From Bryopsis sp. KO-2023 (taxonomy: Eukaryota > Chlorophyta > Ulvophyceae > Bryopsidales > Bryopsidaceae), in NCBI GenBank assembly GCA_030272585.1, contig BSYQ01000003.1, positions 1 to 64,000 on the forward strand: 64,000 nt of DNA. The letters run 5' to 3'. The translations under genes and the position numbers were made by a program. Numbering within the stretch: the first letter of the stretch is position 1; each line of letters begins with the position of its first letter. Below are positions 12,254 to 64,000 of this stretch, piece by piece. The notes under the pieces are model-generated. The model ran no database searches. It was not told the origin of the DNA and worked only from the letters and a program-made list of their open reading frames with translations.

Positions 12254-12389
12254 CCCTAAACCCTAAACCCTAAACCCTAAACCCCTAACCCCTAAACCCC
12301 TAACCCCTAACCCCTAAACCCTAAACCCCTAAACCCTAAACCCTAACCCCTAAACCCTAAACCCTAAACCCTAAACCCTAAACCCTAAA
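12254..12389. repeat. Interstitial telomeric tract between R copies
   Basis: About 136 bp of CCCTAAA with many CCCCTAA and CCCCTAAA variants. It separates the two R copies, so the pattern telomere tract - unit - telomere tract repeats through the subtelomere. Confidence 0.95.
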
Positions 12390-14013: not shown

Positions 14014-14143
14014 CCCTAAACCCTAAACCCTAAACCCTAAACCCTAAACCCTAAACCCTAAACCCTAAACCCCTAAACCCTAAACCCTAAACCCTAAACC
14101 CTAAACCCTAAACCCTAAACCCTGAAACCTAAACCCTGAACCC
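14014..14143. repeat. Interstitial telomeric tract, degenerate
   Basis: About 130 bp of CCCTAAA repeats ending in degraded CCCTGAAACCTAAACCCTGAA. It is the innermost telomeric tract I can see. Confidence 0.93.
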
Positions 14144-14145
14144 AT

Positions 14146-26662: not shown

Positions 26663-27511
26663 CTAGTCACCTGCACCCTGAGAGATCACCTCATCTAGAC
26701 TTCTCTTTTTTGCTGACCCAGATTTCTTAGAAGGTATAACCTCCCACTCAACAATCCGGTGTGGTGCTGCATCACGGTTTGTCTGATTTCTTCCTGCAGT
26801 GCTCTTAGGCAACTCCAATCCTGCAATCCGAAGTGTTGTCATGACTCTTGCTGGAGGAACTGTCAAGCCTGGATGTCTTCTTATCATCCTGCACAGTCCA
26901 CATTCTCCAAACTGAGCAGGTCCTGGACTTGCTGCCTTCAGAGAAATTTGACAGTTTGCCTTCATCCTTCCTTCAGCATCCTGCTGAATAGTGGTATCAT
27001 AGGCATACCACATCCTCAGCCAACATACAGATTTGCAGCAGACCCTGTGCTGACCACAAGGGAATGTATACACTGGTCTGTTGCAGGTCTTGAAACACAG
27101 AGTGCATCCCATGCTTGACTCTGTCAGCCCTTCCACAGGGTTTAGCTGCACTTCTGGCAGTAGCAGTGTCTGATTTGGAAGTATTCTGTCAACAGAATTG
27201 CTGTACCACCCTGCTTCTTCTTCCTTAACATCAGCCACCTTTTTCTTTCCTGCAACTGACTTTCCTTCACACTCCATTACTCTTCCTAAGATCTCATCCG
27301 CATCTGCATCTCTGGGCTGAGTCCCTTGCACCACTTCTGGTATATTTGCTGCCCACTCGCGCCAACAATAATTTTCAGCACGGGCGGCCTGCAACTCAGT
27401 TCTTGCTTTCCGAAGCTGTGCGGACAGATTTGCTGCTGATGCTGCTCTGGAGCTCAACAACTTGAAGGCTTGTTCCACCTGATCCTCGGTCTCTTGAGCG
27501 TGGTCTACCAT
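26663..27511 (-). CDS. Accessory ORF of B: coiled coil plus RING-like Cys/His module
   Basis: A 282-residue sense ORF between pol and the 3' LTR, 60 bp after the pol stop. Residues about 5-65 look like a coiled coil (EQAFKLLSSRAASAANLSAQ onward). The C-terminal half has Cys136-x2-Cys139-x12-Cys152-Gly-x-His155-x-Val-Cys158-x4-Cys163-Trp, then Cys204-x2-Cys207. Spacing resembles a RING finger with one ligand uncertain. A basic, Ser/Lys-rich tail follows. The same order occurs in A2 and E. It is not an envelope, dUTPase or RNase H that I recognise. Function unknown; uninterrupted, so it could be expressed. Confidence 0.8.
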   Translation of the reverse strand: MVDHAQETEDQVEQAFKLLSSRAASAANLSAQLRKARTELQAARAENYCWREWAANIPEVVQGTQPRDADADEILGRVMECEGKSVAGKKKVADVKEEEAGWYSNSVDRILPNQTLLLPEVQLNPVEGLTESSMGCTLCFKTCNRPVYTFPCGQHRVCCKSVCWLRMWYAYDTTIQQDAEGRMKANCQISLKAASPGPAQFGECGLCRMIRRHPGLTVPPARVMTTLRIAGLELPKSTAGRNQTNRDAAPHRIVEWEVIPSKKSGSAKKRSLDEVISQGAGD

Positions 27512-27571: not shown

Positions 27572-29678
27572 TTACTGTGCTTTCCGACTAGGACGTCGCC
27601 TCATCGCGGTCCCTTCACTCCTTTGCTGATAGTCACGTAGTACATCTCGAGCATTCCGCAAATGTTCTGCAGGTTCCCATGTGTCCTCAGACTGATCATA
27701 TCCCTGCCATCGAACAAGGTACTGCTTCCTGCCTCTGACAGTCCTGTCTGCCAGAATTCTGTCCACCTGATATTCCTCTTGACCATCCACAAGTTCAGGT
27801 TCAGGTTGCCACCTGGGTGCCTCCCTTGCTGGAAAGCTGCCCACCTGATCTTCAAATGCAGGTTTGAGCTTGGACACATGAAACACATCATGTATCCTCC
27901 AATGACCTGGCAGTCTCAACCTGACTGCAACTTCAGAGAGCTTCTCAGTGACTTCAAATGGTCCACAGTACTTTGCTGACAACTTTCTGCTCAACACTGC
28001 AGGTAGGGGTAAGTCTTTTGTGGCCAGAAAAACTTTTTCGCCTGGCTCAAAGCCCCCTCCCCGCCTGGTTTCGTCCGCCACCTGGCGTTGACGTGCCTGA
28101 GCAGCAGCAATATTGTGTCTGCATTTTTCCAGATCAGATTGCCAAGTAGTCCACCAATCATCCACTGCTGGGCAGGCTGACACAGCCACAGCACTTGCAG
28201 GAGTCCTTGGGTTCTGCCCATTCATCAAATAGAAGGGGGAGAATCCAGTAGTAGCATTGACACTGGAGTTGTAAGCAAACTCAGCAGCTGCCAAGTGCTG
28301 ATCCCAATCTGTTCCTGCAGGTTCAACATAACTGCGCAGAATTTCCTGCACTGTTCTGTTAGCCCTTTCAGTCTGACCATCTGTCTCAGGATGATAACTG
28401 CTTGACATTGCCAATCTTGTTCCAGCCTTCTTCCAAAGAGACCTCCAAAAATTGCTAGTGAAACGAGTATCCCGATCAGAAACAATTTCTTGAGGTAACC
28501 CAAAGAAACGAACCACATTCTGGAAAAATAAATCTGCTACCCCTGCAGCAGTAACCGTCTGCTTAGTCGGAATAAGTCTGATCATTTTTGTGAACCTATC
28601 CACAACCACCAACAAATAATCTGACCCAGTTCGAGTTCTAGGTAAAGGTCCAACAAAATCAAGTGAAACACTGGTCCACCTGCCATCAGGAACAGGCAGG
28701 GGCTGCAGCTTACCCAAAGGCCTCTGATTAGAAGCCTTGTTCCTCTGACATGAAATGCAATTCCGGACATACTTGTGCACTGACTCAGAGATGTGAGGCC
28801 AGAAATAATGCAGCTGCACCCTGACAAGGGTCTTCCTTCTGCCCAAATGTCCTGCCAATGGGGACTCATGGCAGTCATGCAGTATTTTCTCCCTGAGCCC
28901 ATCTGCTTCAGGAATCCACCATTTCCAAGCATTCCCAATTCTTCTCCAGAGCCTTTGGCCATCCCATTTCACATGTCCAGGTCTGTGTCTTGCAGTGATC
29001 AACTGTTGACACAGTGGATCTTTGGAATAAGCTGTCTGCACCTGTTGCAGGAATCCTTCTTTAACTTCCAGCCTAGCCTGAGCATTCATTTCAGACTTTG
29101 TTTCCTCCACTTGATGTGTGGCCCTGCTCAGAGCATCTGCCACCACATTGTCTCTGCCTGGTCTGTACTTGATCTCGAACTTGAAAGATTGCAGAGTCTC
29201 CATCCATCTTGCTTGCCTCTGCGACAGGTGAGGCTGAGTATGCAAAAACTTGAGGGGTGCATGATCGGTGTGCACCACAAACTCTTGTGCATCCAAATAG
29301 TGTCTCCAGACCTTCAGAGCATGCACAACTGCTAGCAGCTCCTTTTCATGAGTAGCATAGTTGAGTTCTGCAGGTTGCAGCTTCCTGCTTTCAAATGCAA
29401 CTGGCTGCTGACCCTGTCCCTTGTCCTGAGTTAGGACTGCTCCTATTGCATAGTCCGAAGCATCAGTGGTCACTTCAAACTTCAGACTTGGGTCAGGCAC
29501 CAATAGTACTGGTGCAGACATCAATGCCTCCTTGATATCCTGCATGGCTGCAGCTTCTGTCTCAGTCCACTTCCACTCTGCATCCTTTTTGAGTAATGCA
29601 GTCAAAGGCTTGGCTCTGGCAGAGAAGTCCTTCATGAACCTCCTGTAGTAGTTTGCCAGTCCTAGAAAGGACCTGAGA
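27572..29678 (-). CDS. pol: pol of B, 3' part: RNase H, integrase, chromodomain
   Basis: Continues the pol reading frame after the solo LTR (junction [16 protein letters not shown]). RNase H begins at [13 protein letters not shown]. The integrase has a zinc motif H...H...CISC, and catalytic residues in [15 protein letters not shown] and [11 protein letters not shown]-terminal chromodomain ([10 protein letters not shown]...[21 protein letters not shown]) ends about 25 residues before the stop. Chromodomains direct chromovirus integration to particular chromatin. No internal stop is visible; the ORF is broken only by the insertions. Confidence 0.93.
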
Positions 29679-43500: not shown

Positions 43501-45966
43501 ACGGCCAGTAAATCTCACTGCGCACTCCGTTGCTGCAGAGACTCACTTCGTTCGTTTGCTCGATTTACCTCACTCACGACTACTTCGTGACCTCCTTCGT
43601 CGGTAACCTCATTCGTCGCTCGTGAGCACTCCTGTCCCCCCTGGGGCCAGTGGAACGCCCTCGTCCACGTCCCAAAAGGGTAGAAAAACATAGAGTGGGT
43701 AGCCTCCACACAAACACATCAAGTCGCTATGCGCAAATATTGCAAGGTTGCACATATCTCCAGCCTTATCGCATAAAAATGCGTCAACCGCCATAAAACC
43801 TTGAGAAAAAGATGCACCACACATCACAACATATCCACATGGATGATGTGGCGAAGATCTCGCAAATGCGGACACTCTGAAGCGAAATATGGTCGAGTTC
43901 ATCCACGGAGTTAGTCCTGACACTACAGGCCAATGATGAAGGTGTGGCTTCTGTTTTCCCATCAGCCTCACCACACACTTGTCAGACACTGGGAGCAACC
44001 ACGGCTCGACCAGCCTGGAATCAACCATTAGCACATGGATGACGCATCATTGGGGGTCCCTAAACAGGGCATCGCGTTTACAAACGCCTCTCACCAAGTC
44101 CCTTGGTGGATATCCCAAATCTCAAACCATGATGCTCAAGGGTGTTATGAATTTTAGGAGATAAACTCCTTCCTCTTCGCTTCACCACCATCAGCAAACC
44201 TTTTTGCAACCTTTTGCGGTTTTTCACTTGCATCTCATTCTCATGGGGTTGTCAACCATTGTCATCCTCTAAACCCCGTTATGCACAAGGCTATCATCCA
44301 CATAGTGCGTCACCTAGCTCTCGAATCGCTCAGGTGGCGAATAAACATCCTCTCCCTTAGGAGGTATCCCTTAGCCTTTGCACAAGGTTTTGTGATAGTT
44401 AACACAAATGCCCTCGCATGGACTTCAAGGTTCTTTTATACTCTTTGTTACCGCACAATATAAGGCAACAACTCCACGCAGTTTTCTCTTGGAGATCCTT
44501 CTTGCTTCACGCATCTCACGTGGTATAGATCCTTCTTCACGCATCTCACGTGGTATAGACTTCTTGCTTCACGCATCCTCTCTCTCTTATAGATCGAAAT
44601 TTTTATATAAGTTTGAAGTTTTCCCTTGCAACGACGACTCTCTCGTGGAAGTGCATCAACCAGCGCACTGGGTGCACATCTCCTTGTGCTTAACACAAGC
44701 ATGGTATCCCCATAGAACAAAGTTCTAGGGTGGAAAGAACAATAGAGCAATCGATGGTTGAAGGTCTCAACAACACATCGTTTCACGCGAGTCAACGTGG
44801 CGCTTTAAGTTCCTATCGCTTTCTCTCTTTAACACATTGTCTTTCCCTCGTTGTAATTTCGCCATCCACACTTGGTTAACATTACACTCCATAGCCTTTC
44901 AGTCGTTGGATCTTCTTGCTCTCACAAGGTAGAAAAACTTCCGGCCCTTCTTCAAAATATCATGTTATCCCCATTGTGGATAACTCCACAGGTGCTCTTC
45001 ACTTAGCACATTTTCCACACGTCTTCTTTAGCTTTCCTTCCCACTTTTTCTTACTTTTCCATCTTCCATACTCTCCCAAACTTCGACTCATACCTTCACG
45101 ACGGAGTTTCCAAGTGAACGTTCTTTAACTTCTCATGTTGAACGTTTTAGTGCTATCTCTGTAGTTAACGCACTTTCCATGCAGAGGAATCTTCGGGAGT
45201 GTTGGAGGAGCGTCTCGCTTCTACTCACTTACACTTCCCCGTTTTCCTTCTGCTACTGAACGTAGTAACACCACAGCGTTGGTCGCTTCCCCTTATTAGA
45301 GGCGTGCTCCTGCTTAGGTGCTCCATATAAACGCGAGTGCATTTCGCATAATATAGCGACTCGTGTTTACCACTTCTCTTCTTGCTGTTCGTCACTTTTG
45401 TTTAGAACGCAAGGTTGTGGTCGTTCAGTTCCTCTTGGAAACTTCCTCTTTATACTCCCAGCTCTTTTGCAGCGTATAAGTATTTCTCTAGGTGGGGCGC
45501 TTCACAACTACCTCCACACTTGACTCCAATTGAGGCTCAGCCATAATAGCCTTCCACGCTTGCATAGGGAGAATTCAATTTTTCCCCTCGAAGTTTTCAA
45601 TCACATAACTCCATCTCCATCTCCTTTTGGCAGTTGACAAAAGTGCCTCACGAGGTTTACCATATTTCAATGCAGTGCAGATATCTAAGGCACTCAATTG
45701 ACGTGAACACTTGCTCCTTTTCACTTTTTAGCGTCAATTTTTCCCTTTGTCGTGCACCAGTTTCAGATGTTGTGCACCTTGTGGCTAGAACCACGTAATT
45801 CCTTCAATCTCGTTAACCTCAGCACTTAGAAACATCTGGTCCATATTTTCTTCCTCGAAACTCTTATCACTGGTGCCTTCTCGTGCCTCTAAAAATTCAG
45901 ACACCGCACTTGGCATTGATCACGACAGACGCATTCAGCACAACATACGTTGTGCACTTGAACATA
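40568..45966 (-). other. D interior, left part; no intact gene
   Basis: About 5.4 kb without a recognisable protein gene on either strand. Frames are below about 145 codons and lack domain motifs; the sequence is C/T-rich on plus, with many TTCTC and CTCAC words. I see no RT, integrase or protease motif. The last 90 bp before A2 are duplicated at 56116-56205. Confidence 0.7.
41017..41292 (-). pseudogene. Possible remnant of an accessory ORF in D
   Basis: A 91-codon minus-strand frame near the 3' LTR, where other elements have their accessory ORF. It starts with a charged, coiled-coil-like run (EEEEQESRTTKESERAKPET) and ends MCGPHELVCMCIGH, which recalls the CGxHxVC core with one extra residue. 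The first CxxC and the last CxxC are not found, so the relationship is tentative. Confidence 0.3.
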
Positions 45967-46398
45967 TGATAGTGAAGCTTGTGGGTGACGCAATAGTGGT
46001 CGGCTGTGTTGGTTGGATTCGTGATAACTTGCTGGCTAACGCAAGTATACTTGTGGGGTTTGTTGGTTTAGACAACTCTCTAGCTAGCGCGGTTGTGAAC
46101 GCTACTAGAGCACTTGGTTGGATAAGTGATTGCGTCAGGCAAACACTTAGACACACACACACACAAACACACACACAAGCGGGAACACACCAATCCCACG
46201 AATCCCGAGTTCTTACAAAGTAAAGAAGAATAAGAATGAATGTCAAAACAACGAGTGGGCCTCTTAAGTACCCCTAAGTGTAGTACGCTGACGCATGCCC
46301 CAAACTCTGGGTCTAATCTGTCTTACTCGTGAACCCACATGCGTCAGCCACCCTCGGCTCTATCCCAAACTACCTCGTATAGCGCTAAAAGACTAACA
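45967..46398 (-). repeat. 3' LTR of A2
   Basis: 432 bp, reading TGATAGTGAAGC...GACTAACA on plus, the reverse of the A1 LTR. It includes a (CA)n run and the 10-bp inverted repeat CTGACGCATG...CATGCGTCAG. The adjoining internal sequence on minus is the purine tract GCGGGGGGGGCGTA (46399-46412). Confidence 0.96.
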
Positions 46399-46594: not shown

Positions 46595-48493
46595 TTAACG
46601 CTGTTCCTGCGCTTGCGCTTGCTGGATAGCACGCTGCTCCTGCGCATGCGCTTGCTGCACTGCACGATACCGGACACAGGGATCAAATGCGGCAGCCACC
46701 CTCTTGGACTTAAGGAATGGCAGATCCCTTGTGATGCCGGACACCTTGAGCTGCCGCTTCACACACATGTTGCAGTGTGGCAACTTCTCGTGCTCAGCCG
46801 GGAACGGAGGGATTTCTTCGAACGTCGAGCGTGTCAGCTTCAACATATGGGCAGGTAGAGAGAATGGGGAGACGGTGGCGATGGACTTGTTGTCCACTTC
46901 CGCGACTTTTTGGACCGCCGTGACGATGCGCCCCAGCATCGAGTATGCCAACCAATGAGCATCACACACGAGGTGATACCCACAAGGAAGGACGGAATAC
47001 TTCTTCTGCGTCAGCCGCTGAGCACTTGCTTGCATTGGGCTTCTCCCGCACCAAATGCACATGGGCAACTCGTGAAAGTGCCGGTTGCCGCGGTAATTTT
47101 GCAAGGCTCGGTCCCTGGGGTTAGTATATTGGACCTTCGGCCATTTCTCCGACGCAGTGATGGGGTTGCAAGCCTCCTCGATATCCTCCCGTGACAGGTT
47201 CACTTCGCTGGGTGCAGCATCCACTTTGTCTTGAGCAGCCGCCCTTAGTCTTCTGAGCTTAACCTTTTCTCGGAAAGCCCGAAGTGCTGCTTCTGTTGGA
47301 GCTAACTCCAACGGTGGATGGACCGCACGCTGAACCTCTGTCACCTGGCTTGGCCCTTCATCATTCCTTATTTCCCCGTCCTCCAGTTCAGAACTAGGAC
47401 CTTCGAGCCTAGGAGGTGGACTGCCGAAGTCAATTTCTTCGTTAAAATCCAAGTCCAAAAGCTCCTCCTCTCTCATGTCGAATAAGTCCTCCCCCGGTGC
47501 TATTGCGGTAGCCTCATCTCCGGGAGTCTGAACTGTTGGTGCTGGTTGTGAGGGTGCTGGAGTTTTTAATGCGGCAGCCTTTAACTTGAGTAACAAGTTG
47601 GCTCTTGCTGCATCTCCAGGCATACGATCCCTCGGTGGCTCACCACCTTCATCGTCACCGTCCTCTCGCCTTCTCTTTCCGTGTGGATCTTCATCCCTAC
47701 ACGGCGAGCTTGGGCGTTTGTTTTTCCCTTTCCCCTTGCCCTTGCTTGAGCCTCCCGCATCATCGTCCTTGGACGGTTCCAGATCAAGTGTTGCGTTTGA
47801 CAACAGAACTTGGACTTGGCGATCCAGTTCTTCGCGTACCCGTGGTGCTGGTACCGGCGGGTTCAAACGCAGCATCTTGTCCGTTGTTTCGCTCTGCACT
47901 TGAAGTTTTTCAGAGCCGTCTCTGAGGGACTCTCCCAGCAAATCGATCTGCAGCTCTTGTTCTGCCAATTCCTTCTCAAGGTTGTTGGCTGCTGCACTCC
48001 ACGCGGTTGCTACAGCTCGCTGCAGCGTTTCCTCTACCGCGGTAAATCGATTCACCATTCCCCCGAGAGCTTGCTTGCGGAGGTCATTCTCACGATGGTT
48101 AGCCATCATGTGAGATTGGAACCGCTGCTTCTTCAGCTTCATGGCTTCCAATTTTTCTTCCAAGACCTTGGTCTTGTCCTCCGCTTCTTTCTTTTCCGCC
48201 TCCGCCTTATCCTTGGCTTTCTCCGCTGCCTCCTTCGCAGCCTCAGCTGCTTTCGTCCGGTCACTCAACTCTGTGAGCTGCCGGGTTAAGGCCTCATTGT
48301 TCTGCAGCACTTCCTCTGCGGTTGACGTAAAGTGCTGCAGCTCCTCTTCTTTTTGAGCTACCTCCGCTTCCAACCTCGCAATAATTGCGGCGGGTGTGTC
48401 GGCAGCCATTATGTTCGTCGGAAAGAAAGAAATAACAACGGTTTGTGCGTCTTTAGACTCTTTTTCACTCAGGAGCTCGCTCCGTTTACACAA
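46595..48493 (-). CDS. Accessory ORF of A2: coiled coil plus RING-like Cys/His module
   Basis: Sense ORF of 632 codons between pol and the 3' LTR. I favour the ATG at 48409 (MAADTPAAII), giving about 604 residues. Roughly 100 residues of heptads follow (Glu/Lys/Ala-rich), then an acidic and basic low-complexity middle. Numbered from 48493, the C-terminal module is Cys479-x2-Cys482-x21-Cys504-Gly-x-His507-x-Val-Cys510-x2-His513-Trp, then Cys574-x2-Cys577, fitting a loose RING-H2 pattern. A Gln/Ala-rich repeat (QQAxAQEQR) ends it. Role unknown: a ubiquitin-ligase or structural-assembly role would be speculation. Confidence 0.85.
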   Translation of the reverse strand: MCKRSELLSEKESKDAQTVVISFFPTNIMAADTPAAIIARLEAEVAQKEEELQHFTSTAEEVLQNNEALTRQLTELSDRTKAAEAAKEAAEKAKDKAEAEKKEAEDKTKVLEEKLEAMKLKKQRFQSHMMANHRENDLRKQALGGMVNRFTAVEETLQRAVATAWSAAANNLEKELAEQELQIDLLGESLRDGSEKLQVQSETTDKMLRLNPPVPAPRVREELDRQVQVLLSNATLDLEPSKDDDAGGSSKGKGKGKNKRPSSPCRDEDPHGKRRREDGDDEGGEPPRDRMPGDAARANLLLKLKAAALKTPAPSQPAPTVQTPGDEATAIAPGEDLFDMREEELLDLDFNEEIDFGSPPPRLEGPSSELEDGEIRNDEGPSQVTEVQRAVHPPLELAPTEAALRAFREKVKLRRLRAAAQDKVDAAPSEVNLSREDIEEACNPITASEKWPKVQYTNPRDRALQNYRGNRHFHELPMCIWCGRSPMQASAQRLTQKKYSVLPCGYHLVCDAHWLAYSMLGRIVTAVQKVAEVDNKSIATVSPFSLPAHMLKLTRSTFEEIPPFPAEHEKLPHCNMCVKRQLKVSGITRDLPFLKSKRVAAAFDPCVRYRAVQQAHAQEQRAIQQAQAQEQR

Positions 48494-48858
48494 ACACTAG
48501 GGCAAAATGGTTCGAGGGCTGCGCTTATAAGGCTGGGTGACTCGTACACTTTCCTCGTTGAGTTATTGGGGTGAGACACCAACGTTTCACTCGGTTGGAG
48601 TCTCGTCAAGACCACCTCAACACGTCACTTGATAGGGGTTTTCTCGGAACAACCACACTATCTCGAATGTGACATCGTTTGCCCGGTTTCTAAAGTACTA
48701 CTGAAGCTACACTTACTGCGCCAGCCAAATAACTTAGGCACCTAACGCATTAAAGATAAAGAGTTGGTTTGGAAGTCGACAGAGTTTTTCTAAGGTATCC
48801 TTTTTCGCGCCCCCTTGCTATAAGGAGTTCCACCTTAGCCATCAAACACTCTGTTTCC

Positions 48859-51800
48859 CTATTCTCTTCCTTTCTGCAACTCTTTTCTTTCTTTCTCTTT
48901 AAATGCGCGAAGTATATCTGGTGCGTTAACCAGATTAGCTTCAGGTTCCCAAGTAGCGTCAAGTAGATCGTATCCTTTCCACAGCACTAGGTATTCGCGA
49001 TTGCGTTTACCTCTAGCCCTTAGGATATTTTCGACCTCATACTCTACTTCGCTACCAATCAACTCTCCTTCTGGAGGTTGTATTTGCCTGCTGTTATCAC
49101 TCGAGGCGTGATAACGCTTGAACTTAGAAACATGAAACACTGGGTGAATGAGCCATGTTTCCGGAAGTTGAACTCTGTAAGCCACCTTTGATATTTTCTC
49201 CACAATTTCAAAGGGACCCACAAATCGACGGCGCAGTTTGGGACTCACTTTGTTCAAAGCAGCCAACGGAATAAAACGGCTTTTTATCAGGACTTTATCC
49301 CCTTTCTCAAAAGCAATATCTTTTCTCTTCTTGTTTGCACTCACACACATTCTGTGTTGTGCTCTAGAGTAATATGCTTTTGCGGTATCTAAGTCCTGTG
49401 CCATCCGTGCTACCATAGTCTTAACTGCTTCCACTTGAAATTGCGTTGCCGTCCCACCAATGTTTGGTGTTTCTGGATGGTACCCATACATCAAGTATGC
49501 AGGTGCGAACCCTGTACTCGCATTCACTGCATTGTTTGCTGCAAACTCTGCTGTAGGTAAATACTCAACCCACTTATGGGGATACCTCTCAGCATATGGC
49601 CTTAAGAAATTTTCCAGAGTACGTATGGTAACCTCACTCTGCCCATCCGTCTGAGGGTGGTAAGCTGTACTCATACGAATCTCTGTACCCAGAGCTTTAA
49701 AAAGCGTCTGCCAGAACTTGCTGGTAAAGCGAGGGTCTCTATCAGACACAATCACTTTAGGTAGGCCATGGTTGCGGTAAACATGTTCGATAAAAAGTTG
49801 GGCGTATCCTGCAGCGGTAATCTCTTTAGTACATGGGGCGAAATGCACAAACTTGGTAAGTCTATCGACAAAGACAGCTACAGCACTAAACCCATTGGTT
49901 GCTGGTAGATCTGTCACCAAGTCAGTGGTAATCTGCTCCCACTTCCGCTCAGGTATTGGCAGGGGTTGAAGTAAGCCCATAGGCTTCTGTGTGTCAGCCT
50001 TTATTTGTTGGCACACAGGGCATTCGCGCACAAATGCCTTCAACTCATTCATCCACCCCTTCCACCAATATCGCCGCGCTAGGATTTCTCCTGTTCGCGC
50101 TGGTCCTGTATGGCCTGCTGAAGGTGTCTCATGGCACTCCTTCATAATCTTATTGCGCTGGCCTTTAGGAACCACCACTTTCTCGACTAATCCTCTCTTT
50201 GGGACCGTCCAGAGTATTCCCTCTCTGAGGAAATATCCCTCAACTTCCTCGCCACTCTCAAGCTTCCGCAATATCTTCACCAAGGAGTTATCAGCTTGGA
50301 GGGCTTGTTTCCACTCGTCTTGGCTTGCTTGATGCACTTGCCAAGTGGAAATGTTCATCGCAGTTTCCACGGGCTTAGGAACACTGCGGGAGAGAGCATC
50401 TGCTAACACATTAGCCTTGCCTTTGATATAGGAGATCTTGGGGTTGATCGAAGTCAGGTACCCCGCCTCAAGCCATCTTGCTTGGGTTCTAGAAAGGTTC
50501 CTCTGCGACAGAATATGCGTCAGAGGTTGGTGGTCAGTGAACACTGTTACTCCACCCGCACAACCTTCTAGGTAATGTCTCCACTGCACCATCGCATAAC
50601 ATATTGCACACAACTCTTTGTCGTATGGTGCATAGTTAAGCTCGGCAGGCTTGAATCTACGTGAGAGGTAAGCTATTGGCTGTAGCCCCTCTCCGTGATC
50701 CTGTGTTAACACGGCACCGATGGCCTCATTCGACGCATCAGTGATCACAGTGTAAGGCAGTGACGCATCTGGAAAAATAAGGACGGGAGCTTGACTTAGA
50801 CGCTTTTTCAGTTCATTGAATGCGCCACGCTCAACCTGTCCCCATCTCCAGGGATGGTCTTTTTTCACTAAGTCATGGAGTGGTCCAGCAACATGTGCAA
50901 ACTGGGGAATGAATTTCCTGTAGTATGAAACCATTCCAAGGAAACTACGTACATCGCTAACACTCTGTAGTTCCTTCCACTCCTTCACTGCCTTCACTTT
51001 TTGTTCCTGTGGTTCTAACCCACCTCCGCTAATGCGGTAGCCAAGATAGTCTACTGTTGCGACAGCCAGCTCACTTTTACTTGCCTTAGCAAAAAGCTGA
51101 TATTCTGCTAGCCGCGACAGGACTTTCTCTAAGTGTTCGGCATGCTGTTCCATATTTTCAGAGAAGATGAGTATGTCATCGATAAAGACAACAACAAAAT
51201 CATCTAAAAACTCTGCGAGTAGGTCTTGCACTAGAGTTTGGAATTGCGCTGGGCAATTGGTTAGCCCAAAAGGCGCTACCAAAAACTCAAAGTGACCGTA
51301 TCTCGTGCGGAACGCTGTTTTATCTGTATCAGATGGCCTTACTGGAAATTGCCAATAGCCTGATCGCAGATCTAACTTTGAGAACACTTTGGCTTTGAAC
51401 ACTCTATCCATCAATTCTTCTGGCAGGGGTAAAGGATACCGGTTTTTCACCGTCACCTTATTGATCCACCTGTAATCCACACACATCCTTAAGCCTCCAT
51501 CCTTTTTCGGTACAAATAGGATTGGCGCGCCCCAAGGGGACTCGGATGGTTTGATTTTCTTCTGTTCCAGAAGGTAATCCACTTGTGCTTTCACTTCATC
51601 CAGCTCTGCTGGTGAAAGCTTGTATATTGGACGATGGATAGGTGTTGGATCCTCCAGGTCTATCTTAAACTCATGACCTTTTCTCTTCGGAGGGATCCCT
51701 GGGGGTAAATCACGAGGGAACACACCACGGTGTGTTTCTACCACCTTTTTAATTTCGGCAGGGGTGTCTGAACGAATAAGTTTGCCAATCTCATCCTCAG

Positions 51801-52853
51801 TGTTGAATGGCTGTGTTCGCTCTATTGCGTCAGGCAATTCATGTTGGCCTAAAGCTTTCTCTTCAGACTCTTGCACTACAACCATGAATGCTGTCTCTGT
51901 TTTGAGATGACGCATCATTCGTTTAGCTGAACACTCAGTCACTGGCACTTCTTGCAGTATCGACTGTACTTTTCGTTCAGGTTCAATACTCTCTTGGGTT
52001 GGATGACGCAACGGGAGATGAAACACTTGGCTGTTTTTGCAAACTGAAATCTCATTTTGCTGAAAGTCTATGCGGGGGTTTTCTTTCTGCAACCAAGGCA
52101 TGCCCAATATTAGGTCATAACCAAGGTCTGGGAACAGATCCGCTTTCATTTTGCACTTCAGCCCTCCTATCTTTACTCGGAGGTTGTTACAGCTGCCAGC
52201 CAGTTCTTTAATATCTCCGTTTGCCAACATTGCTCTCTTTGAGCTTGGTGTAATCGACAACCCGAGATCACGCGCTACCTTATCATTGATATAGTTTGCG
52301 GTACTTCCACAATCAATGAATGCATAAAGGTCCGTGGTCTTGATCCGTGCTTTTACTTCGTACCCTCTCACAGGCACTTCTTGAATTTTTAACAGAGGGC
52401 ATGTGTCACCCTTGGTTGACGAAGTTGATCGAACTTCTGACACATTAACTCGCTCTGTGGTAGACCGCTGGGTTGTTTCTGACCCACTATCGTCTACGTC
52501 TGCAGGCAGGGACTCCTGTAGACTACTCTGCGACTCCAATGAGCCCACAGATTCACTAACAGAGGGAAGAGATGCAGATGACGCATGAGGCGCGTCCATC
52601 TCATCCGGTGTGCTTTCCTTCTGTTCATTTTTCCAATCGCAGTTGTCATGTGCCGATTGGGTAGATGTGGAGAGTGTCTCTGTTCTCTCTTCACGCGGTG
52701 TACTAGTCCGCTCCTCAGGTTTTCCACTGTGAGTACAAACCTTTTTCGAGGCACCTACTTTTGATCTATGCTTCCTACGCCGCCTACGAACTCTATTTCG
52801 CTTACGACGTTTGCGTCGGCCAGGCTCAGACGAAGCAGTTTCCTGCCTGGCGG
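48859..52853 (-). CDS. pol: pol of A2: protease, RT, RNase H, integrase, chromodomain
   Basis: Entered by -1 frameshifting from gag; the first in-frame ATG is at 52599, giving 1246 residues from there. Protease DCGS near residue 96, RT FIDD near 472, RNase H TDAS near 617. The integrase has an H-H-C-C zinc region (HETPSAGHTG...CPVCQQIK) and catalytic residues in TTDLVTDL, SDRDPRF and GQSEVTIR. The chromodomain (YEVENILRARGKRNREYLVL through TWEPEANL) lies close to the C-terminus. It is complete with no stops and has the chromovirus domain order. It copies element RNA to DNA and integrates it. Confidence 0.96.
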
Positions 52854-52872
52854 TCAGTTTAACATTTTTTTT
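52819..52872 (-). promoter_or_regulatory. -1 frameshift signal, gag to pol (A2)
   Basis: The minus-strand A8 run (52865-52872) gives the slippery A-AAA-AAA in the gag frame. The stem arms GCCAGGC and GCCTGGC (52845-52851, 52819-52825) lie just downstream. Same layout as A1. Confidence 0.8.
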
Positions 52873-55496
52873 ACATCGGGGAGGTTTTTCACCTCCTCCA
52901 ATCTAGGACATTGCCTCACAGGATGACCCTTCTTTCCACAAAGATAACAATTATATCCCCCTCCCCCCTGGGGGTTCTGTCTTCCCTGATTGGCTTGTCC
53001 TCTTCCACGGTTACCACCACCGCGTCCACGTCCACCACCACCACGTCCTCCTCCTCGTCCTTGTTGCTGTTGCTGCTGCTGTTGCACTCCTGCGGCAGCT
53101 TGTGGTGGTGCTTGGGCTGGTGGTGTAGGGTTCTGCTGCTGCTGACCCTGATTCTGGCCTTTCTTCTTTCGCCAGACTCCTTTCTTTTTCTGATTGGTCT
53201 GCCCTCCTTGGCCTTGTGTTCCAACTCCAAGGGCTTCCAATCGTTCGGCGGATATGATGGCGGCCTCGACATCTCGAGGTACCGTTGCTGCGACTAACTT
53301 CTGAACTTCACTCTTAAGTCCATCCACGAAGAGCAAATACTGGTGATCCTCTTCGAGGTCTGGAATCCTCAAGACTAACCGCTGAAACTCTTTGACAAAT
53401 TGTTTCACGGTTCCAGTCTGCTTGAGTTTATGGAGGTCACGCCACGCTTCATCTCGATCACTAGAGAATTCGAAAGCTGTAGCTAAGCCATCCATGAAGT
53501 CCATCCAGTCACGGAAGGGTGGTCTTTCACCTCGGTGAATTTTCAACTCTTGCATCGTTAACCAATCCGAGGCAGCTCCATAAAGGTTAGTGGCCATAAT
53601 CGATTGCCACTGTGCTTCATGCACTCCGCAGGTTCTCAAGTACCGCGTCATGAGCACTTGCCATTTACGGGCTTTTGGTTCTCCACTTCCGTTAAATGCG
53701 CGAGGCATTTGCAACTTGACGGTGCTAGGCAACCACTGTCCTTGCCTAGGAGGTCCTGGCCCTGCTGGTCCAGCGCCACCTCCACCTCCACCTCCATCAG
53801 GAGGTCCACCGGGAGGTCCACCGCCTCCACCATCTCCACCGCCGCCACCACCTCCACCGCCGTCAGGCGCACCTGGAATGCGGGGAGGTGGGCGGTTTCG
53901 TCTGTCGCGGTAATCATCACCGCCATCATCATCTGGGTCGTCATCACCAGGGTCTCCAAAGTTACCTCGCATGCGAGGAACTCGACTGGGTCCACCAGTA
54001 GACTCATATGAACCAAGTGCAGCAAAGGGATTATTTTCTACCCTTGCTCCCAAAGCACTTAACCCAAGTCCCAATCTTCCAGTACGTGTGGGGATCTGCA
54101 TGGGTTCTTTTCCTTTCTCTTCTCTGACCTGTGCCTTAGCACGCTCAAGGTCAATTTGATATAACACTTCTGCTGAGGAGAGAACTCTTGGGTTAGTTCG
54201 TGTGGGTCTACGTGATCCATCGGCAGAGTCGGGTTCTGAGATGCGTACTCCAGGCTGAGCTCTTGTACTTGGAGGTATCAACTGAGGGAATGTGAAATCA
54301 GCGTCTGGTGCGCTGTCCACTGCAGTGCATGGTGGTGCTTCTGCAGCAACAATTTCACCCTCCTCGACCTGTACTGCTGGAGGAGCCGGTATTGTTGAGG
54401 TTCCTGCCCCAACCATTCCTACCGCGAAGCTCTGGTCTAGTGGCGGCCATGATGCAGCCAACTGCTTTACTGATTTCTTCGGCAGCGGCATTCCAAAGGC
54501 TGAGTCCTCAGGCTCAGGAGAAGTTGATTCTTCTCGCTCTGGTGATACTGCTCGAGCATCACTTCCACTTTGGGCACTCTGACTTCCGCCACTCACATCC
54601 TCCATGCTTCGTTCCAGGCCAGATAATCTTAAGGCAACCACATCAGCTGCATCTTGCTGCTGATCCCAGGTCTTGGATGCCTTTTTCTCCAAGGCAATCA
54701 AATCTTTTTGAATTGCTACTCTGGAGCTCTGCAAACGCTTCACCTCAGCACCTTGTTTGTGCAAGGACTCCCGAAACAATTCTAGAGTCCGTTCGACCTT
54801 TTCGTTGGAATCCGCAACAGTTCCTAATAAGCCTTCAATTCTCCGCCCTTGAACAAGGGATAACTCGGAGAGTTGTTTTAACTGAAGTGCTGATGCTTCA
54901 GTTGCTTCTTTTAGGTCAGCAAAACGAGAGTCCGCTAGAATGTCTGCGGCATCCATTCTCCTCGTTATTGCATCCACAGAAGCTTTGATCTCGGCTCTTT
55001 CTTTCCTATGGTCGATATCTTGGCGTAGTAGCCTCTGCTCGTATCGACTATGTTGAGCCGCTACTGAATCCAGCTTCTGCTGTTGCGACACCACCGCATG
55101 CTGTGTGGCCTCAACCTGTTGCGCATGCTGGTGCTGTGTTTCCAGCGCCTGCCCGATCACCTCTGATGCGCCAGCCAGTTGGTTCGACACAGAGGCCTCA
55201 GTATGGGCTAGCCTCTGCCCCAGTGTCTGGTCAACTTGCTGCAGGTGACCCCTTAGCCCGTGGGCTAAATCGTCCACACGGTCATGGACCGCATCCACAT
55301 CCTCTCTTAAGGCTTCCGCATCAGCTCCCATGTCTATGTCGACAGCTGCTTGCTGGACATTGTGGATGTTCTGGACGTTTATTTGTTGGTACACAACATT
55401 GGGTGCGTCAGGCAATTCCTCATCGAACTCAGGTTCAATCCCTGGCTCTTCAACTTGAGGCTCGCGCACTGCCAATGCGTGTTCACGGTCAGCCAT
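52854..55496 (-). CDS. gag: gag of A2, intact (880 residues)
   Basis: About twice the size of many Ty3/gypsy Gags because of an N-terminal extension. Residues 1-40 are acidic; about 60-300 are coiled-coil heptads. A Ser/Pro-rich linker and poly-Gly stretch precede the capsid domain (VKLQMPRAFNGSGEPKARKW onward). The tail has RGG repeats and a CCHC knuckle (CYLCGKKGHPVRQC). The start is chosen at MADREHAL, which is conserved in A1. The 5' leader is about 130 bp from the PBS. Confidence 0.96.
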   Translation of the reverse strand: MADREHALAVREPQVEEPGIEPEFDEELPDAPNVVYQQINVQNIHNVQQAAVDIDMGADAEALREDVDAVHDRVDDLAHGLRGHLQQVDQTLGQRLAHTEASVSNQLAGASEVIGQALETQHQHAQQVEATQHAVVSQQQKLDSVAAQHSRYEQRLLRQDIDHRKERAEIKASVDAITRRMDAADILADSRFADLKEATEASALQLKQLSELSLVQGRRIEGLLGTVADSNEKVERTLELFRESLHKQGAEVKRLQSSRVAIQKDLIALEKKASKTWDQQQDAADVVALRLSGLERSMEDVSGGSQSAQSGSDARAVSPEREESTSPEPEDSAFGMPLPKKSVKQLAASWPPLDQSFAVGMVGAGTSTIPAPPAVQVEEGEIVAAEAPPCTAVDSAPDADFTFPQLIPPSTRAQPGVRISEPDSADGSRRPTRTNPRVLSSAEVLYQIDLERAKAQVREEKGKEPMQIPTRTGRLGLGLSALGARVENNPFAALGSYESTGGPSRVPRMRGNFGDPGDDDPDDDGGDDYRDRRNRPPPRIPGAPDGGGGGGGGGDGGGGGPPGGPPDGGGGGGGAGPAGPGPPRQGQWLPSTVKLQMPRAFNGSGEPKARKWQVLMTRYLRTCGVHEAQWQSIMATNLYGAASDWLTMQELKIHRGERPPFRDWMDFMDGLATAFEFSSDRDEAWRDLHKLKQTGTVKQFVKEFQRLVLRIPDLEEDHQYLLFVDGLKSEVQKLVAATVPRDVEAAIISAERLEALGVGTQGQGGQTNQKKKGVWRKKKGQNQGQQQQNPTPPAQAPPQAAAGVQQQQQQQQGRGGGRGGGGRGRGGGNRGRGQANQGRQNPQGGGGYNCYLCGKKGHPVRQCPRLEEVKNLPDVKKMLN

Positions 55497-55641: not shown

Positions 55642-56073
55642 TGATAGTGAAGCTTGTGGGTGACGCAATAGTGGTCGGCTGTGTTGGTTGGATTCGTGAT
55701 AACTTGCTGGCTAACGCAAGTATACTTGTGGGGTTTGTTGGTTTAGACAACTCTCTAGCTAGCGCGGTTGTGAACGCTACTAGAGCACTTGGTTGGATAA
55801 GTGATTGCGTCAGGCAAACACTTAGACACACACACACACAAACACACACACAAGCGGGAACACACCAATCCCACGAATCCCGAGTTCTTACAAAGTAAAG
55901 AAGAATAAGAATGAATGTCAAAACAACGAGTGGGCCTCTTAAGTACCCCTAAGTGTAGTACGCTGACGCATGCCCCAAACTCTGGGTCTAATCTGTCTTA
56001 CTCGTGAACCCACATGCGTCAGCCACCCTCGGCTCTATCCCAAACTACCTCGTATAGCGCTAAAAGACTAACA
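55642..56073 (-). repeat. 5' LTR of A2
   Basis: 432 bp; I see no difference from the 3' LTR at 45967-46398. No clear TATA box is visible in either. Confidence 0.96.
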
Positions 56074-61255: not shown

Positions 61256-63136
61256 TCACTCTGTCTCCGAGTCCAAGCCCTCGAGATCCCACATCGTTCG
61301 TAGGATGTATGTCAGCCGGGATCCAAGCTCCTTGACACCGGTTTTCGAAGGGAAGGCTGCGGATTTGACCCGACACACCTGACATGGTAGGGTGAGCTGA
61401 TCAGTGGTGTCCGGGGATGGAAGCGATGGGAGCGGAAGAAAATCCTCCGCACGTTTCCCGAGGCGAAGATGCTCCGCGGTCATATCGAGCGGCCGGATAC
61501 TTTTATCCGCGAGCCACCGATTGATGACCCGATCCATTACATGATGATGGGGCCAGTGTGTAGGGCAAACGTAGTGTGCCCCACAACTGGTTTTTACCCC
61601 GACACCATGTTGCGTTCCCGCGCAGTAATAGCACTTCGTTCCCGCGAGTGCTGGATCGTGCGTGCCTTTGATCTTCTTGAGCGCTGCACGCAACTCTTTC
61701 GCGTCCTTCGCGCGTGTGCGTTTCTTCCCCCGCTTGGTGCTTTTCTCCGCGCCTTTTTTTTCCGCTTCCTTCACTTTTTCCGCATCCGCCTGAGTCGACG
61801 GCTCCCCTTTCTTGGTTTCGGCGGTTGTCTTTCTCTCCGCGTCCGCCTTCTTTTGTTTTCCCGCGTCCGCGTGTGTTTTTCCCGCGTCCGCCTTTTGTTT
61901 TTCCGCAGCCGCCTTTTTCTCCGCGTGTGTTTTCTCCGCGTCCGCTTTTTGTTTTTCCGCGGCCGCCTTTTTCTCCGCGGCTGCTTTCTTTTTCTCCGCA
62001 TCCGCCTCCGCGAGTGCTTTGAGCATTGCTGCTTTGACGAGTGCTTTTGTTTGTGTGTCCTCCGCGCTCAGCGGTGGTTTTGAACCTGTTGGTTCTTCCG
62101 CTATGACGTCTTCGTTGTCGTCATCGTCAAGGGAACTCTGGGGTGGTTTCGCCAATTGCTTTGAGATATTCTCCGCTGCCCCGTCTATCCGGCTCAACCA
62201 GTCGTTCACTTGGTCCAAATTGTGCGCCTTCGTAAGGTCCACGTTCGTGATGGTGATCTCCTTGACCTTATGCATATCGACCTGATCTTTTATCCGGCCG
62301 TCTCGCACCAACTGCGCCTGCGCCTTCGCGGTATCCAGCCGTACTCCCACAAGTCCGTGTGAGAAACTCGCGAGTGACTGCGGGATGTCCATGAGGTTGG
62401 CCCGAAGCCGGTTGACCTCAACTTTGGACGCGACGAGTTCTGACATTAGCACACGGGCGGTCGTGCTGCTGCAGAAGTCGTCTCCCTTTTCCGCCTTGGC
62501 GAGAGCGGCTTTTGTGGCTGCCAACTCTTTTTGGACCGTGACGAGGGCTTTGTAGCGTTTCTCCGCCTCGCCGATGAGCTGTTTGTTCTCCTTGTGGTAC
62601 CAATCCGTATCCGCTTGAGCTTTGGTGGCTGCTTTCCGGGAGAGGGTAAGATCGGTGGTCAGCTGGGTAATTTCCTTGGATTTCGCGGAAATTTCTTGAT
62701 CCCGCGCGGAAATTACTTGATCCTTTGCGGAATTTTCTTCCTCTTGCGCGGATAACTCTCGCTTGATGGTCTTGAGTTCCGCTTCCGCACCACGGGCTTT
62801 CACTTGAGCATCACTCAACTGCTGTTGAAGAGCCCGGTATCGATTGGTCCAATCCTCTTCCAGCTTAGTTTTTTCCGCCGCCCTTTCCTCTTTTGCTTCC
62901 CGGAGTTCCGCCGCCAGCTCACAGATTTCCGCCTCCTGCTCATCTCTTTTTGTCACACCCTCCTGAAGCTTCTTGTGTAACGTTTCGTAATCCGCCGCCA
63001 CATTTGCATGTGATTCCACCGCCTCAGTTCCAGATTCTAAGGCTTCCGCGAGCTCCGTTTCCAAGGCCTCTGCCTTTGCTTTCCACTCATCCCTCTGCTG
63101 ACGGAGTCGCTCCAAATGCTCGGATGTTCCAGACAT
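61256..63136 (-). CDS. Accessory ORF of E: long coiled coil plus RING-like Cys/His module
   Basis: 626 residues from MSGTSEHLERLRQQRDEW, just after E pol. Residues about 5-230 are continuous heptads rich in Glu/Ala/Lys. About 350-470 is a Lys/Ala/Glu-rich repetitive stretch (EKKAAAEKQKADAEKTHA units). The C-terminal module is Cys502-x2-Cys505-x12-Cys518-Gly-x-His521-x-Val-Cys524-x2-His527-Trp, then Cys585-x2-Cys588, a RING-H2-like spacing. The first half matches B in spacing (x12) and A2 in the His-Trp end. Uninterrupted; function unknown. Confidence 0.85.
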   Translation of the reverse strand: MSGTSEHLERLRQQRDEWKAKAEALETELAEALESGTEAVESHANVAADYETLHKKLQEGVTKRDEQEAEICELAAELREAKEERAAEKTKLEEDWTNRYRALQQQLSDAQVKARGAEAELKTIKRELSAQEEENSAKDQVISARDQEISAKSKEITQLTTDLTLSRKAATKAQADTDWYHKENKQLIGEAEKRYKALVTVQKELAATKAALAKAEKGDDFCSSTTARVLMSELVASKVEVNRLRANLMDIPQSLASFSHGLVGVRLDTAKAQAQLVRDGRIKDQVDMHKVKEITITNVDLTKAHNLDQVNDWLSRIDGAAENISKQLAKPPQSSLDDDDNEDVIAEEPTGSKPPLSAEDTQTKALVKAAMLKALAEADAEKKKAAAEKKAAAEKQKADAEKTHAEKKAAAEKQKADAGKTHADAGKQKKADAERKTTAETKKGEPSTQADAEKVKEAEKKGAEKSTKRGKKRTRAKDAKELRAALKKIKGTHDPALAGTKCYYCAGTQHGVGVKTSCGAHYVCPTHWPHHHVMDRVINRWLADKSIRPLDMTAEHLRLGKRAEDFLPLPSLPSPDTTDQLTLPCQVCRVKSAAFPSKTGVKELGSRLTYILRTMWDLEGLDSETE

Positions 63137-63457
63137 TTCTATGCAAATGCTTTGAATGTGTTGCTCTGGTGGCGGTTGCTTCTGAAGGTTCAGTGCGCTC
63201 GGCGTAAACTTTTGACGAAATAGGGCTGGAGGGTTGCAGCCTAGCTAGTTTATACAAGTGATAGAGTCACTCACTTGTCACTGATGGAAGACTTCCTCTA
63301 TTGAGTGTCGTCTCATCCAAGGTTCTAGCCCGCTTTGATATTACCCTCGCTATCTTGACTCAGCTCTCTGTAGCTCGCTCTTAGATGTATTTGATTATGG
63401 GTGAACTGATACCAACACATCAACCATCGTTCCCTTCCCCATATCAATCTGTATCAT
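63137..63457 (-). other. Spacer between E pol and accessory ORF
   Basis: About 320 bp without an ORF. A similar gap (about 365 bp) lies between pol and the accessory ORF in A2, but only 60 bp in B. How the downstream ORF is translated (spliced or subgenomic RNA, or internal entry) is not visible. Confidence 0.6.
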
Positions 63458-64000
63458 CTAAAGAGGTTGTTTCCGCCGCCTTGTCCGCCTTTCCTCCCGC
63501 TTAGAGCGGATTTCCTCTTTGGTCGGCAAGCGCGTGCGGTTTTTGAGATACTCTGCCAAGATATCGCTGGCATTGGCCAGGTGGGCTTCTGGCTCCCAGG
63601 TGGCTTCCATCAAATCATAGCCCTTCCACAGAATCAAGTACTCCCGACGGTTGGGTGTGCCTCGATCCCGCAGAATACGCTCGACCTCATATTCAATGGC
63701 GCCATCCACCAACTCCCCTTCGGGAGGTTCCACCTCCCGCTCATCATCTTCTGACAAGCGGTTGTATGCCTTCAGCTTGGAGACATGGAAGGTAGAATGA
63801 ATAGTCCAATGGGGTGGTAGTTGCAGGCGATAAGCGACTGTGGATATCGCTTTGTCCACTTTGAATGGCCCGACAAACCTCCGGCGGATTTTTGGTGGAA
63901 TCTTTTGCAAGGATTGCAGCGGAATAAATGTACTCCGCACCAAAACTTCATCCCCTTCTTTGAAGATTACTTCCCGCCGCCGTTTGTTCGCTTGGACACA
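63458..64000 (-). CDS. pol: pol of E, C-terminal end (runs off the window)
   Basis: Open from the window edge (NKRRREVIFKEGDEVLVRST) through the integrase C-terminal GPFKV region and YRLQLPPHWTIHSTFHVSKL. It ends in a chromodomain (YEVERILRDRGTPNRREYLI through ATWEPEAHL) and a basic tail ending at 63458. It is the same domain order as A2. The upstream protease, RT and catalytic integrase lie outside the window. Confidence 0.93.
   Translation of the reverse strand, partial: CVQANKRRREVIFKEGDEVLVRSTFIPLQSLQKIPPKIRRRFVGPFKVDKAISTVAYRLQLPPHWTIHSTFHVSKLKAYNRLSEDDEREVEPPEGELVDGAIEYEVERILRDRGTPNRREYLILWKGYDLMEATWEPEAHLANASDILAEYLKNRTRLPTKEEIRSKREERRTRRRKQPL

What the first reader, a model, noticed from the sequence alone, without database searches (positions are those of the whole stretch)
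46595..48493. Extra coiled-coil/RING-like ORF after pol in three chromovirus elements
Seen: A2 (46595-48493), B (26663-27511) and E (61256-63136) each carry a sense ORF between the pol chromodomain and the 3' end. All three have an N-terminal coiled coil and a C-terminal pattern C-x2-C-x(12-21)-C-G-x-H-x-V-C-x(2-4)-[HC]-W-x(39-60)-C-x2-C, while the rest of the sequence differs widely. Known: chromoviruses usually encode only gag and pol; accessory ORFs in other plant gypsy clades are env-like or upstream of gag. Inference: a conserved accessory protein under selection, with RING-like ligand spacing, possibly acting in host ubiquitination or particle assembly.
Basis: partly seen in the sequence, partly recalled or inferred. 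Interest (0 to 1): 0.88.

Follow-up and report, generated by a model that had tools for sequence, protein, structure and literature searches.

The report
Zinc-module accessory gene in algal retrotransposons
Retrovirus-like jumping genes in a giant-celled green seaweed carry an extra third gene whose protein ends in a RING-like, probably zinc-binding module; selection keeps this gene intact and the elements appear to have swapped it between families, so it probably does real but still unknown work for them.

Summary
All three ORFs are open on the window's minus strand, in the sense of their own pol, and carry the eight-ligand motif (0 of 20,000 shuffles of each). The host is not a streptophyte: contig lengths identify Bryopsis sp. 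KO-2023, an ulvophyte green alga. The gene (ORF3) is not confined to three elements. It follows a Pfam-supported chromodomain in every family read with an intact junction, including family G, fetched because it was missing from the ORF3 hit lists. It follows 102 of 106 listed B-type pol-tail rows. Selection is purifying (pN/pS 0.12 in A, 0.26 in B). ORF3 synonymous sites conflict with pol history, indicating cassette exchange. RING membership is not proven: ligand order is C3HC4 in 8 of 11 ORF3s, but Pfam RING hits are far below cut-off and AlphaFold2 failed. The coiled coil is weakly supported. Best mechanistic guess: an oligomeric, zinc-folded, host-facing adaptor; RNA export, silencing suppression and particle assembly stay open. 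Expression was not tested.

The parts
46595..48409 (-). ORF3 of element A2, 604 aa from ATG at 48409 (frame open to 48493, TTG)
   Evidence: at least 70 copies in the genome
46763..47059 (-). A2 zinc module, residues 451-549: C-x2-C-x21-C-x2-H-x2-C-x2-H-x60-C-x2-C
   Evidence: ligands invariant in 30 of 30 copies
48859..52599 (-). A2 pol (PR-RT-RH-IN-chromodomain), 1246 aa
   Evidence: Pfam
52854..55496 (-). A2 gag, 880 aa
   Evidence: Pfam Retrotrans_gag
55642..56073 (-). A2 5' LTR (432 bp, identical to the 3' LTR, TG...CA; TATGT target-site duplication)
45967..46398 (-). A2 3' LTR; the ORF3 stop lies 196 nt upstream of it
48524..48529 (-). TATA-like box 120 nt before the A2 ORF3 ATG (possible own promoter; inference)
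26663..27511 (-). ORF3 of element B, 282 aa
26891..27106 (-). B zinc module, residues 136-207: C-x2-C-x12-C-x2-H-x2-C-x4-C-x40-C-x2-C
27572..29635 (-). B pol, RNase H-IN-chromodomain part; separated from the RT part by an A-family LTR sequence (29692-30111)
61256..63136 (-). ORF3 of element E, 626 aa
61373..61633 (-). E zinc module, residues 502-588: C-x2-C-x12-C-x2-H-x2-C-x2-H-x57-C-x2-C
63249..63254 (-). TATA-like box 118 nt before the E ORF3 ATG (inference)
63458..64000 (-). E pol C-terminus with chromodomain, cut by the window end
   Evidence: Pfam Chromo E 1.6e-13

Best explanation
ORF3 is a genuine third gene of the chromoviruses of this alga. SHOWN: it lies in sense just after the pol chromodomain (and, in A2, 196 nt before the 3' LTR), it is kept open and under purifying selection, its eight Cys/His positions recur in the same order between families whose other residues differ, and its synonymous sites do not follow pol's, so in the pairs examined it has moved between element families as a cassette. 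INFERRED: the C-terminal module folds around two zinc ions in a RING-like way; the charged, proline-poor N-terminal half oligomerises; and the protein acts as a host-facing adaptor that binds, and perhaps ubiquitinates or sequesters, a nuclear host factor that silences or restricts the element. That would explain why most of the protein except the ligands diverges and why swapping the whole gene pays. It is probably made from a separate RNA (spliced, or from a promoter in the pol-ORF3 gap in A/E-type elements) rather than as part of the polyprotein.
For: Presence: 102 of 106 B-type pol-tail rows (only 104 of 1,619 candidates were scored) have a same-strand ORF3 hit within 2.5 kb. Family G, fetched because it was absent from the hit lists, has the same layout, with Pfam Chromo upstream, 0 of 20,000 shuffles, and matches the B-type module profile by hhalign at E 1.3e-5 over all ligands. 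Selection: pN/pS 0.123 (bootstrap 0.067-0.207) in 30 A copies and 0.260 (0.162-0.422) in 30 B copies; between families omega 0.110 in the module vs 0.325 in the N-terminus for L061-L068, 0.103 vs 0.381 for L064-L066. Ligands invariant in 30 of 30 A and 30 of 30 B copies (weak alone, since copies are alike). Ligand order C3HC4 in 8 of 11 ORF3s. Pfam hits of B-type modules are RING families only, in 3 of 7 modules (PF24921 E 0.0028, PF14447 2.4, PF13923 4.8). Cassette exchange: fourfold-site identity B-L061 pol 158/236 vs ORF3 8/42 (p 8e-9); L061-L068 pol 108/196 vs ORF3 103/134 (p 7e-5); B-L068 108/200 vs 6/42 (p 2e-6); E-L067 pol 46/70 vs ORF3 24/92 (p 5e-7); switch inside the chromodomain. 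Basic NLS-like runs in 5 of 11 ORF3s; no hydrophobic segment above KD19 1.39.
Against: No RING model passes its cut-off, 4 of 7 B-type modules have no RING hit at all, and other modules gave other families: A2 Vps36-NZF (E 0.07), G Dickkopf_N (E 0.6). Ligand spacing is unlike a canonical RING: x4 between ligands 5 and 6 in 8 of 11, and 38-60 residues before ligand 7. The A/E modules join the B-type profile only by motif: hhalign probability 1.25%. AlphaFold2 gave no usable fold. Six of 11 ORF3s show no NLS-like run, and the heptad test was weak. The 30 A copies are the best of 70 by ORF3 protein score, which biases pN/pS down; B is 30 of 33 full-length copies, so less biased. In B the module is no more constrained than the rest (0.24-0.27). 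Informative sites in L061 pol are mixed between bases 425 and 875. No expression, zinc, binding or partner data exist; the silencing link is an analogy.
Confidence: 0.4

Rival explanations
1. RNA-export or RNA-chaperone accessory protein, working like CERV of the C. elegans Ty3/gypsy element Cer1: an oligomeric nuclear protein with a Cys loop that is needed to bring unspliced genomic RNA out of the nucleus.
For: CERV combines a potential leucine zipper, a candidate NLS (KRKK) and a possible C4 zinc finger whose cysteines are needed for genomic RNA export (PMC10309623, passages seen). ORF3 here has a proline-poor N-terminus, a Cys/His module and NLS-like runs in A, E, L063, L067 and G. If ORF3 is spliced (not tested), the unspliced genomic RNA needs an exporter.
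Against: No sequence comparison with CERV was made. ORF3 has two CxxC pairs plus CxxHxxC, not one C4 loop. The exchanged block does not include the LTR, so the protein would part from an RNA target there, though not from one inside ORF3.
Confidence: 0.27
2. Silencing suppressor working like the CGxxH cysteine-rich proteins of furo-, peclu-, tobra- and hordeiviruses.
For: Several of those proteins pair a Cys-Gly-x-x-His motif with coiled coils and dimerise; tobravirus 16K is listed with target AGO4 (PMC5023674, passages seen). ORF3 pairs C-[GHRQ]-x-H with a proline-poor N-terminus.
Against: The motif differs by one residue (C-x2-H here, C-x3-H there); no sequence comparison was made; small-RNA silencing in Bryopsis was not tested.
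Confidence: 0.15
3. Structural or assembly cofactor of the virus-like particle (a second Gag-like or virion-associated protein).
For: Sense position after pol, an oligomer-type N-terminus and a zinc module would fit a particle protein (inference).
Against: A2 gag already has a capsid domain and a weak CCHC knuckle match; ORF3 has moved between elements with different pols, which a tight particle partner would resist.
Confidence: 0.13
4. Env-like protein.
For: Position after pol, as for the env-like ORFs described in PMC7264820 (part 1 of 3 read).
Against: No hydrophobic segment: maximum 19-residue Kyte-Doolittle mean 0.70-1.39 in 11 ORF3s.
Confidence: 0.02
5. Non-functional passenger ORF.
For: Neumann et al. 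2019 raise the question whether extra ORFs of plant elements have any function (PMC6317226, passages seen).
Against: Purifying selection in two families and between two family pairs; the same layout in the families read.
Confidence: 0.03

Closest known systems
Extra ORFs between pol and the 3' LTR (eORF-3'F / aORF-3S) of plant LTR retrotransposons, e.g. SIRE, Athila, Bagy2
   Same: Sense ORF of more than 250 codons after pol, in most copies; highly divergent between families
   [quoted passage not shown] here one eight-ligand module recurs in all the chromovirus families read
Chromoviruses with an additional ORF of unknown function (fungal and Selaginella survey)
   Different: I did not see which elements, where, or what the ORF encodes, so it was not compared; a Selaginella element has a short ORF3 that holds the chromodomain itself (PMC3350952, passages)
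Modular ORF3s of bdelloid rotifer LTR elements (GDSL, DEDDy, CC, TM)
   Same: ORF3 types shared between elements of different lineages (PMC5408684, passages)
   Different: Those are different protein types; here exchange is between homologous genes of one type
CERV of Cer1 (Ty3/gypsy, C. elegans)
   Same: Accessory product with zipper, NLS and cysteine loop (PMC10309623, passages)
   Different: Made from a spliced RNA that shares reading frame with the polyprotein; one C4 loop; no homology tested
RING fingers (C3HC4)
   Same: Ligand order C-C-C-H-C-C-C-C in 8 of 11 ORF3s; C-x-[ILV]-C-F start like many RINGs (recalled)
   Different: x4 between ligands 5 and 6, long loop before ligand 7, His as ligand 6 in A, E, L067; below Pfam cut-offs
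CGxxH cysteine-rich silencing suppressors of rod-shaped plant RNA viruses
   Same: Cys/His motif plus coiled coil (PMC5023674, passages)
   Different: CGxxH versus C-x2-H; no homology tested
Chlamyvir, the algal chromovirus clade
   Same: Chromovirus from algae (PMC6317226, passages)
   Different: Membership of these elements in Chlamyvir was not tested; the passages seen mention no such ORF there

Membership tests
Chromovirus (Ty3/gypsy with chromodomain) | pol ends in a chromodomain after integrase | tested here: met
   Pfam Chromo above cut-off in A and B and in E, L061, L062, L064, L067, L068 and G; L063's copy is broken
Extra ORF between pol and 3' LTR, sense | sense ORF of at least 250 codons downstream of pol, in most copies | tested here: met
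   282-626 aa from ATG; 102 of 106 listed pol-tail rows; 3' LTR seen for A2 only
RING finger | eight ligands in order C3HC4 or C3H2C3 with RING spacing | tested here: inconclusive
   Order C3HC4 in 8 of 11, C-C-C-H-C-H-C-C in A, E, L067; ligand 5-6 spacing x4 in 8 of 11; RING spacing rule recalled
RING finger | reaches a curated RING profile cut-off | tested here: not met
   best 18.1 bits against a cut-off of 50
RING finger | cross-brace fold | tested here: inconclusive
   AlphaFold2 with 3 sequences: pLDDT 39.5 and 47.1
RING finger | E2 binding and ubiquitin ligase activity | not testable with these tools
   needs biochemistry
Env-like protein | transmembrane segment | tested here: not met
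   max KD19 0.70-1.39 in 11 ORF3s
CGxxH cysteine-rich suppressor | Cys-Gly-x-x-His | tested here: not met
   the conserved ligand pair is C-[GHRQ]-x-H in all 11
CERV | nuclear protein required for genomic RNA export | not testable with these tools
   NLS-like runs in 5 of 11 only
Coiled-coil protein | heptad repeat in the N-terminal part | tested here: inconclusive
   clear only in L067 (0 of 200 shuffles); the other ten not significant in a crude test

The most novel reading that the evidence does not exclude
Chromoviruses of siphonous green algae share an old, exchangeable host-interaction gene: a RING-like, two-zinc accessory protein that is swapped between element families as a cassette, driven by an arms race with host silencing, much as viruses swap accessory or entry genes.
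Probability: 0.3. Interest if true: 0.8.

Novelty: new variant of a known kind. Interest (0 to 1): 0.62.

Why it matters
Extra ORFs of LTR retrotransposons are common, but whether they have a function is an open question (Neumann et al. 2019, PMC6317226, passages seen). Here one genome offers about ten element families with the same ligand skeleton, measurable selection, tens of near-identical copies and at least one mapped cassette exchange. That makes the question of what a retrotransposon's third gene is for directly testable, in an alga assembled into 28 contigs.

Tried and rejected
Non-autonomous idea: locus L063 has a broken, rearranged pol next to an open ORF3, and I first read it as an ORF3-only element. 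One search shows copies of the same family whose RT frame is open over 1297-1410 aa with an ORF3 hit downstream on the same strand (C2, C6:2.2 Mb, C6:4.25 Mb, C8), so I dropped it.

Idea that one family (G, RT 63%) lacks ORF3: contradicted by reading one copy.

Structure: two AlphaFold2 jobs with three window sequences each gave pLDDT 39.5 and 47.1; I did not run fold searches on them.

Homologues elsewhere: P0001 hit only two Bryopsis gene models that lack the module; alignment A1 and the E module found none at E <= 1. That search needs shared exact words, scores only the best candidates, and the Bryopsis gene models themselves hardly include ORF3, so absence elsewhere is not shown. No eukaryotic genome other than this one was searched, and the viral contig scan failed. 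PDB searches gave chance hits or none. NCBIfam gave one chance hit.

Internal promoter: TATA-like boxes at -120, -118 and -126 in A, E, L067 (chance 0.05-0.08 each; the E and L067 gaps are homologous), none in the other seven gaps; suggestive only. BLAST found no meaningful similarity between the A gap and the A LTR (best E 0.35).

Splice acceptor: pyrimidine-AG candidates exist in several gaps; I did not test their conservation.

Literature: looked for such an ORF and for retrotransposons of this Bryopsis; I saw no report of a zinc-module ORF in chromoviruses. The library holds open-access papers only, I saw passages or listings of most, and no paper on this alga's nuclear genome was found in it. 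PMC2864245 does mark an additional ORF of unknown function in some chromoviruses.

Full report
1. What is there. The window begins with a telomeric CCCTAAA array (to about base 3598) at the end of contig C3 of a 91.1-Mb, 28-contig genome. Two protein hits lie on contigs of 7,048,199 and 3,628,164 bases, the lengths of contigs C5 and C12, and belong to Bryopsis sp. KO-2023, a siphonous ulvophyte.

2. The three ORFs. A2 46595-48493, B 26663-27511 and E 61256-63136 are open on the minus strand, in the sense of their own pol. The A and B pols carry Pfam RNase H, IN and Chromo domains; the E pol tail with Chromo enters from the window end. A2 is a complete, young element: identical 432-bp LTRs, TG...CA, TATGT duplication, ORF3 stop 196 nt before the 3' LTR. 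No Pfam family passes its cut-off in the three ORFs. The motif is found only in these three among 44,731 residues of window ORFs of at least 60 aa, and in 0 of 20,000 shuffles of each protein.

3. It is a shared gene of the chromoviruses read here. ORF3 of A has at least 70 copies (70 of 340 candidates scored), 62 without a stop; B has 33 full-length rows, 32 without a stop; the 32 best E rows cover 625 or 626 of 626 residues without a stop. These lists are ranked by ORF3 protein score, so they favour intact copies. Searching with B also found its C-terminal module in further families at 26-45% identity. I fetched seven of those places and one E relative: L061, L068, L062, L063, L064-L066 and L067. 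Where the pol tail is intact, ORF3 starts 60-449 nt after the pol stop, and the pol tails carry Chromo above cut-off (L065 and L066 read by eye only). L063 is a broken, rearranged copy, but its family has copies with open pol frames and ORF3 downstream. Of 106 B-type pol-tail rows (104 copies, two split into two rows; 104 of 1,619 candidates scored), 102 rows have a same-strand ORF3 hit within 2.5 kb; three of the four misses have a same-strand ORF3 7-12 kb further on and the fourth at 20 kb, as nested insertions could give (coordinates). For A, 52 of 104 listed pol tails are matched by the 70 scored ORF3 rows; both lists are capped, so the other 52 are unknown, not losses. A blind test came from family G: its RT (63% to L069) turned up, its places were missing from the ORF3 lists, and I half expected it to lack the gene. 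The 2-kb stretch of one copy shows a chromodomain end (Pfam E 1.3e-9) followed by an ORF with a 177-residue proline-free N-terminus and C-x2-C-x13-C-x2-H-x2-C-x4-C-x38-C-x2-C. Its module matches the B-type profile at E 1.3e-5, probability 81%.

4. The module. Ligand order is C-C-C-H-C-C-C-C in B, L061, L062, L063, L064, L066, L068 and G, and C-C-C-H-C-H-C-C in A, E and L067. Linking A/E to the B type rests on the motif, the position and pol kinship (A and B pol 42% identical over 680 aligned columns): hhalign of the two module profiles is not significant (1.25%); that of E/L067 with A2 is moderate (E 4e-4, probability 35%). The only Pfam matches of the B-type modules are RING families, in 3 of 7 modules, far below cut-off; A2 and G gave other families and E and L067 none. 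So 'RING-like' is fair; 'RING' is unproven.

5. Selection. Within A, ORF3 pN/pS is 0.123 (bootstrap 0.067-0.207), within B 0.260 (0.162-0.422), against dN/dS 0.043 and 0.105 for the pol tails of 29 of the 30 loci in each. A copies are the 30 best of 70 by protein score, so A is biased downwards; B uses 30 of 33 full-length copies. Between families the module is three to four times more constrained than the N-terminal part (0.110 vs 0.325; 0.103 vs 0.381). Within B the three segments are alike (0.24-0.27), within A the segment that holds the module is the lowest (0.020). The eight ligands are invariant in 30 of 30 A and 30 of 30 B copies, but at 93-100% identity that says little alone; one of the 30 A copies has a stop.

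6. Cassette exchange. At fourfold-degenerate sites, B and L061 agree at 158 of 236 pol sites but 8 of 42 ORF3 sites, below the chance level of about 0.3; B and L068 at 108 of 200 and 6 of 42; L061 and L068 at 108 of 196 pol sites but 103 of 134 ORF3 sites; E and L067 at 46 of 70 and 24 of 92 (Fisher p 8e-9, 2e-6, 7e-5, 5e-7). Other pairs (A-E, L062-L064, B-L062) are near chance in both genes or in ORF3, and L064-L066 agree in both, so they do not test it. Pol groups L061 with B, ORF3 groups L061 with L068. Informative sites favour B in most pol windows from base 875 to 1775 of L061, are mixed from 425 to 875, and switch to L068 inside the chromodomain, between 1775 and 1925. Similarity of L061 to L068 falls again after ORF3 (0.71, 0.65, 0.37), so the shared block runs from the chromodomain to about the end of ORF3. 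In E-L067 the pol tail plus the first 240 nt of the gap align at 81% while ORF3 is not alignable by blastn, which argues against mere local hypermutation. These are a few pairs with one copy per family; full trees are still needed.

7. How it may work. Shown: position, selection, ligand recurrence, discordance. Inferred: two zinc ions, oligomerisation, host target. A constant ligand skeleton, a fast surface and whole-gene swapping fit a host-facing adaptor best. CERV-like RNA export is a close rival. Expression is probably from a separate RNA: the ORF3 start lies thousands of bases from the 5' LTR in A2 with up to five ATGs in the gap in some families (none in B), and A, E and L067 have TATA-like boxes at -118 to -126. 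None of this was tested on RNA.

8. Known or new. Sense extra ORFs after pol are well known (PMC7264820, first of three parts read; PMC6317226, passages), and an additional ORF of unknown function is marked in some chromoviruses (PMC2864245, passages). [quoted passage not shown] I saw no report of a shared zinc module in chromoviruses. I therefore call it a new variant of a known kind.

Noticed in passing
window 1-18544: Telomeric CCCTAAA array to about 3598, further interstitial CCCTAAA arrays near 9708-10564, 12348-12389 and 14014-14119, 1999-bp-spaced repeats from 3585 and a 351-bp satellite about 14849-18544.
   Followed up: partly
G000 contig C2: Thirteen short or stop-bearing, diverged ORF3 remnants lie on contig C2 (one more on C15): C2 may hold an old, poorly recombining region.
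   Followed up: no
G000:C9:270027-312282: Five A-family pol tails spaced exactly 10,264 bases apart, as in a tandem array.
   Followed up: no
window 29692-30111: A-family LTR sequence inside the B element's pol, splitting it.
   Followed up: partly
window 48524-48529 and 63249-63254; L067: TATA-like boxes 118-126 nt before the ORF3 start in A/E-type elements: possible internal promoter.
   Followed up: partly
window 45883-45967 and 56118-56202: An identical 85-bp stretch next to the 3' end of A2 and 45 bp outside its 5' end; unexplained.
   Followed up: no
window 34600-35523: ORF with a hAT-family transposase dimerisation domain (Pfam E 5e-19); the neighbouring ORF 32721-33782 had no Pfam match.
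   Followed up: partly
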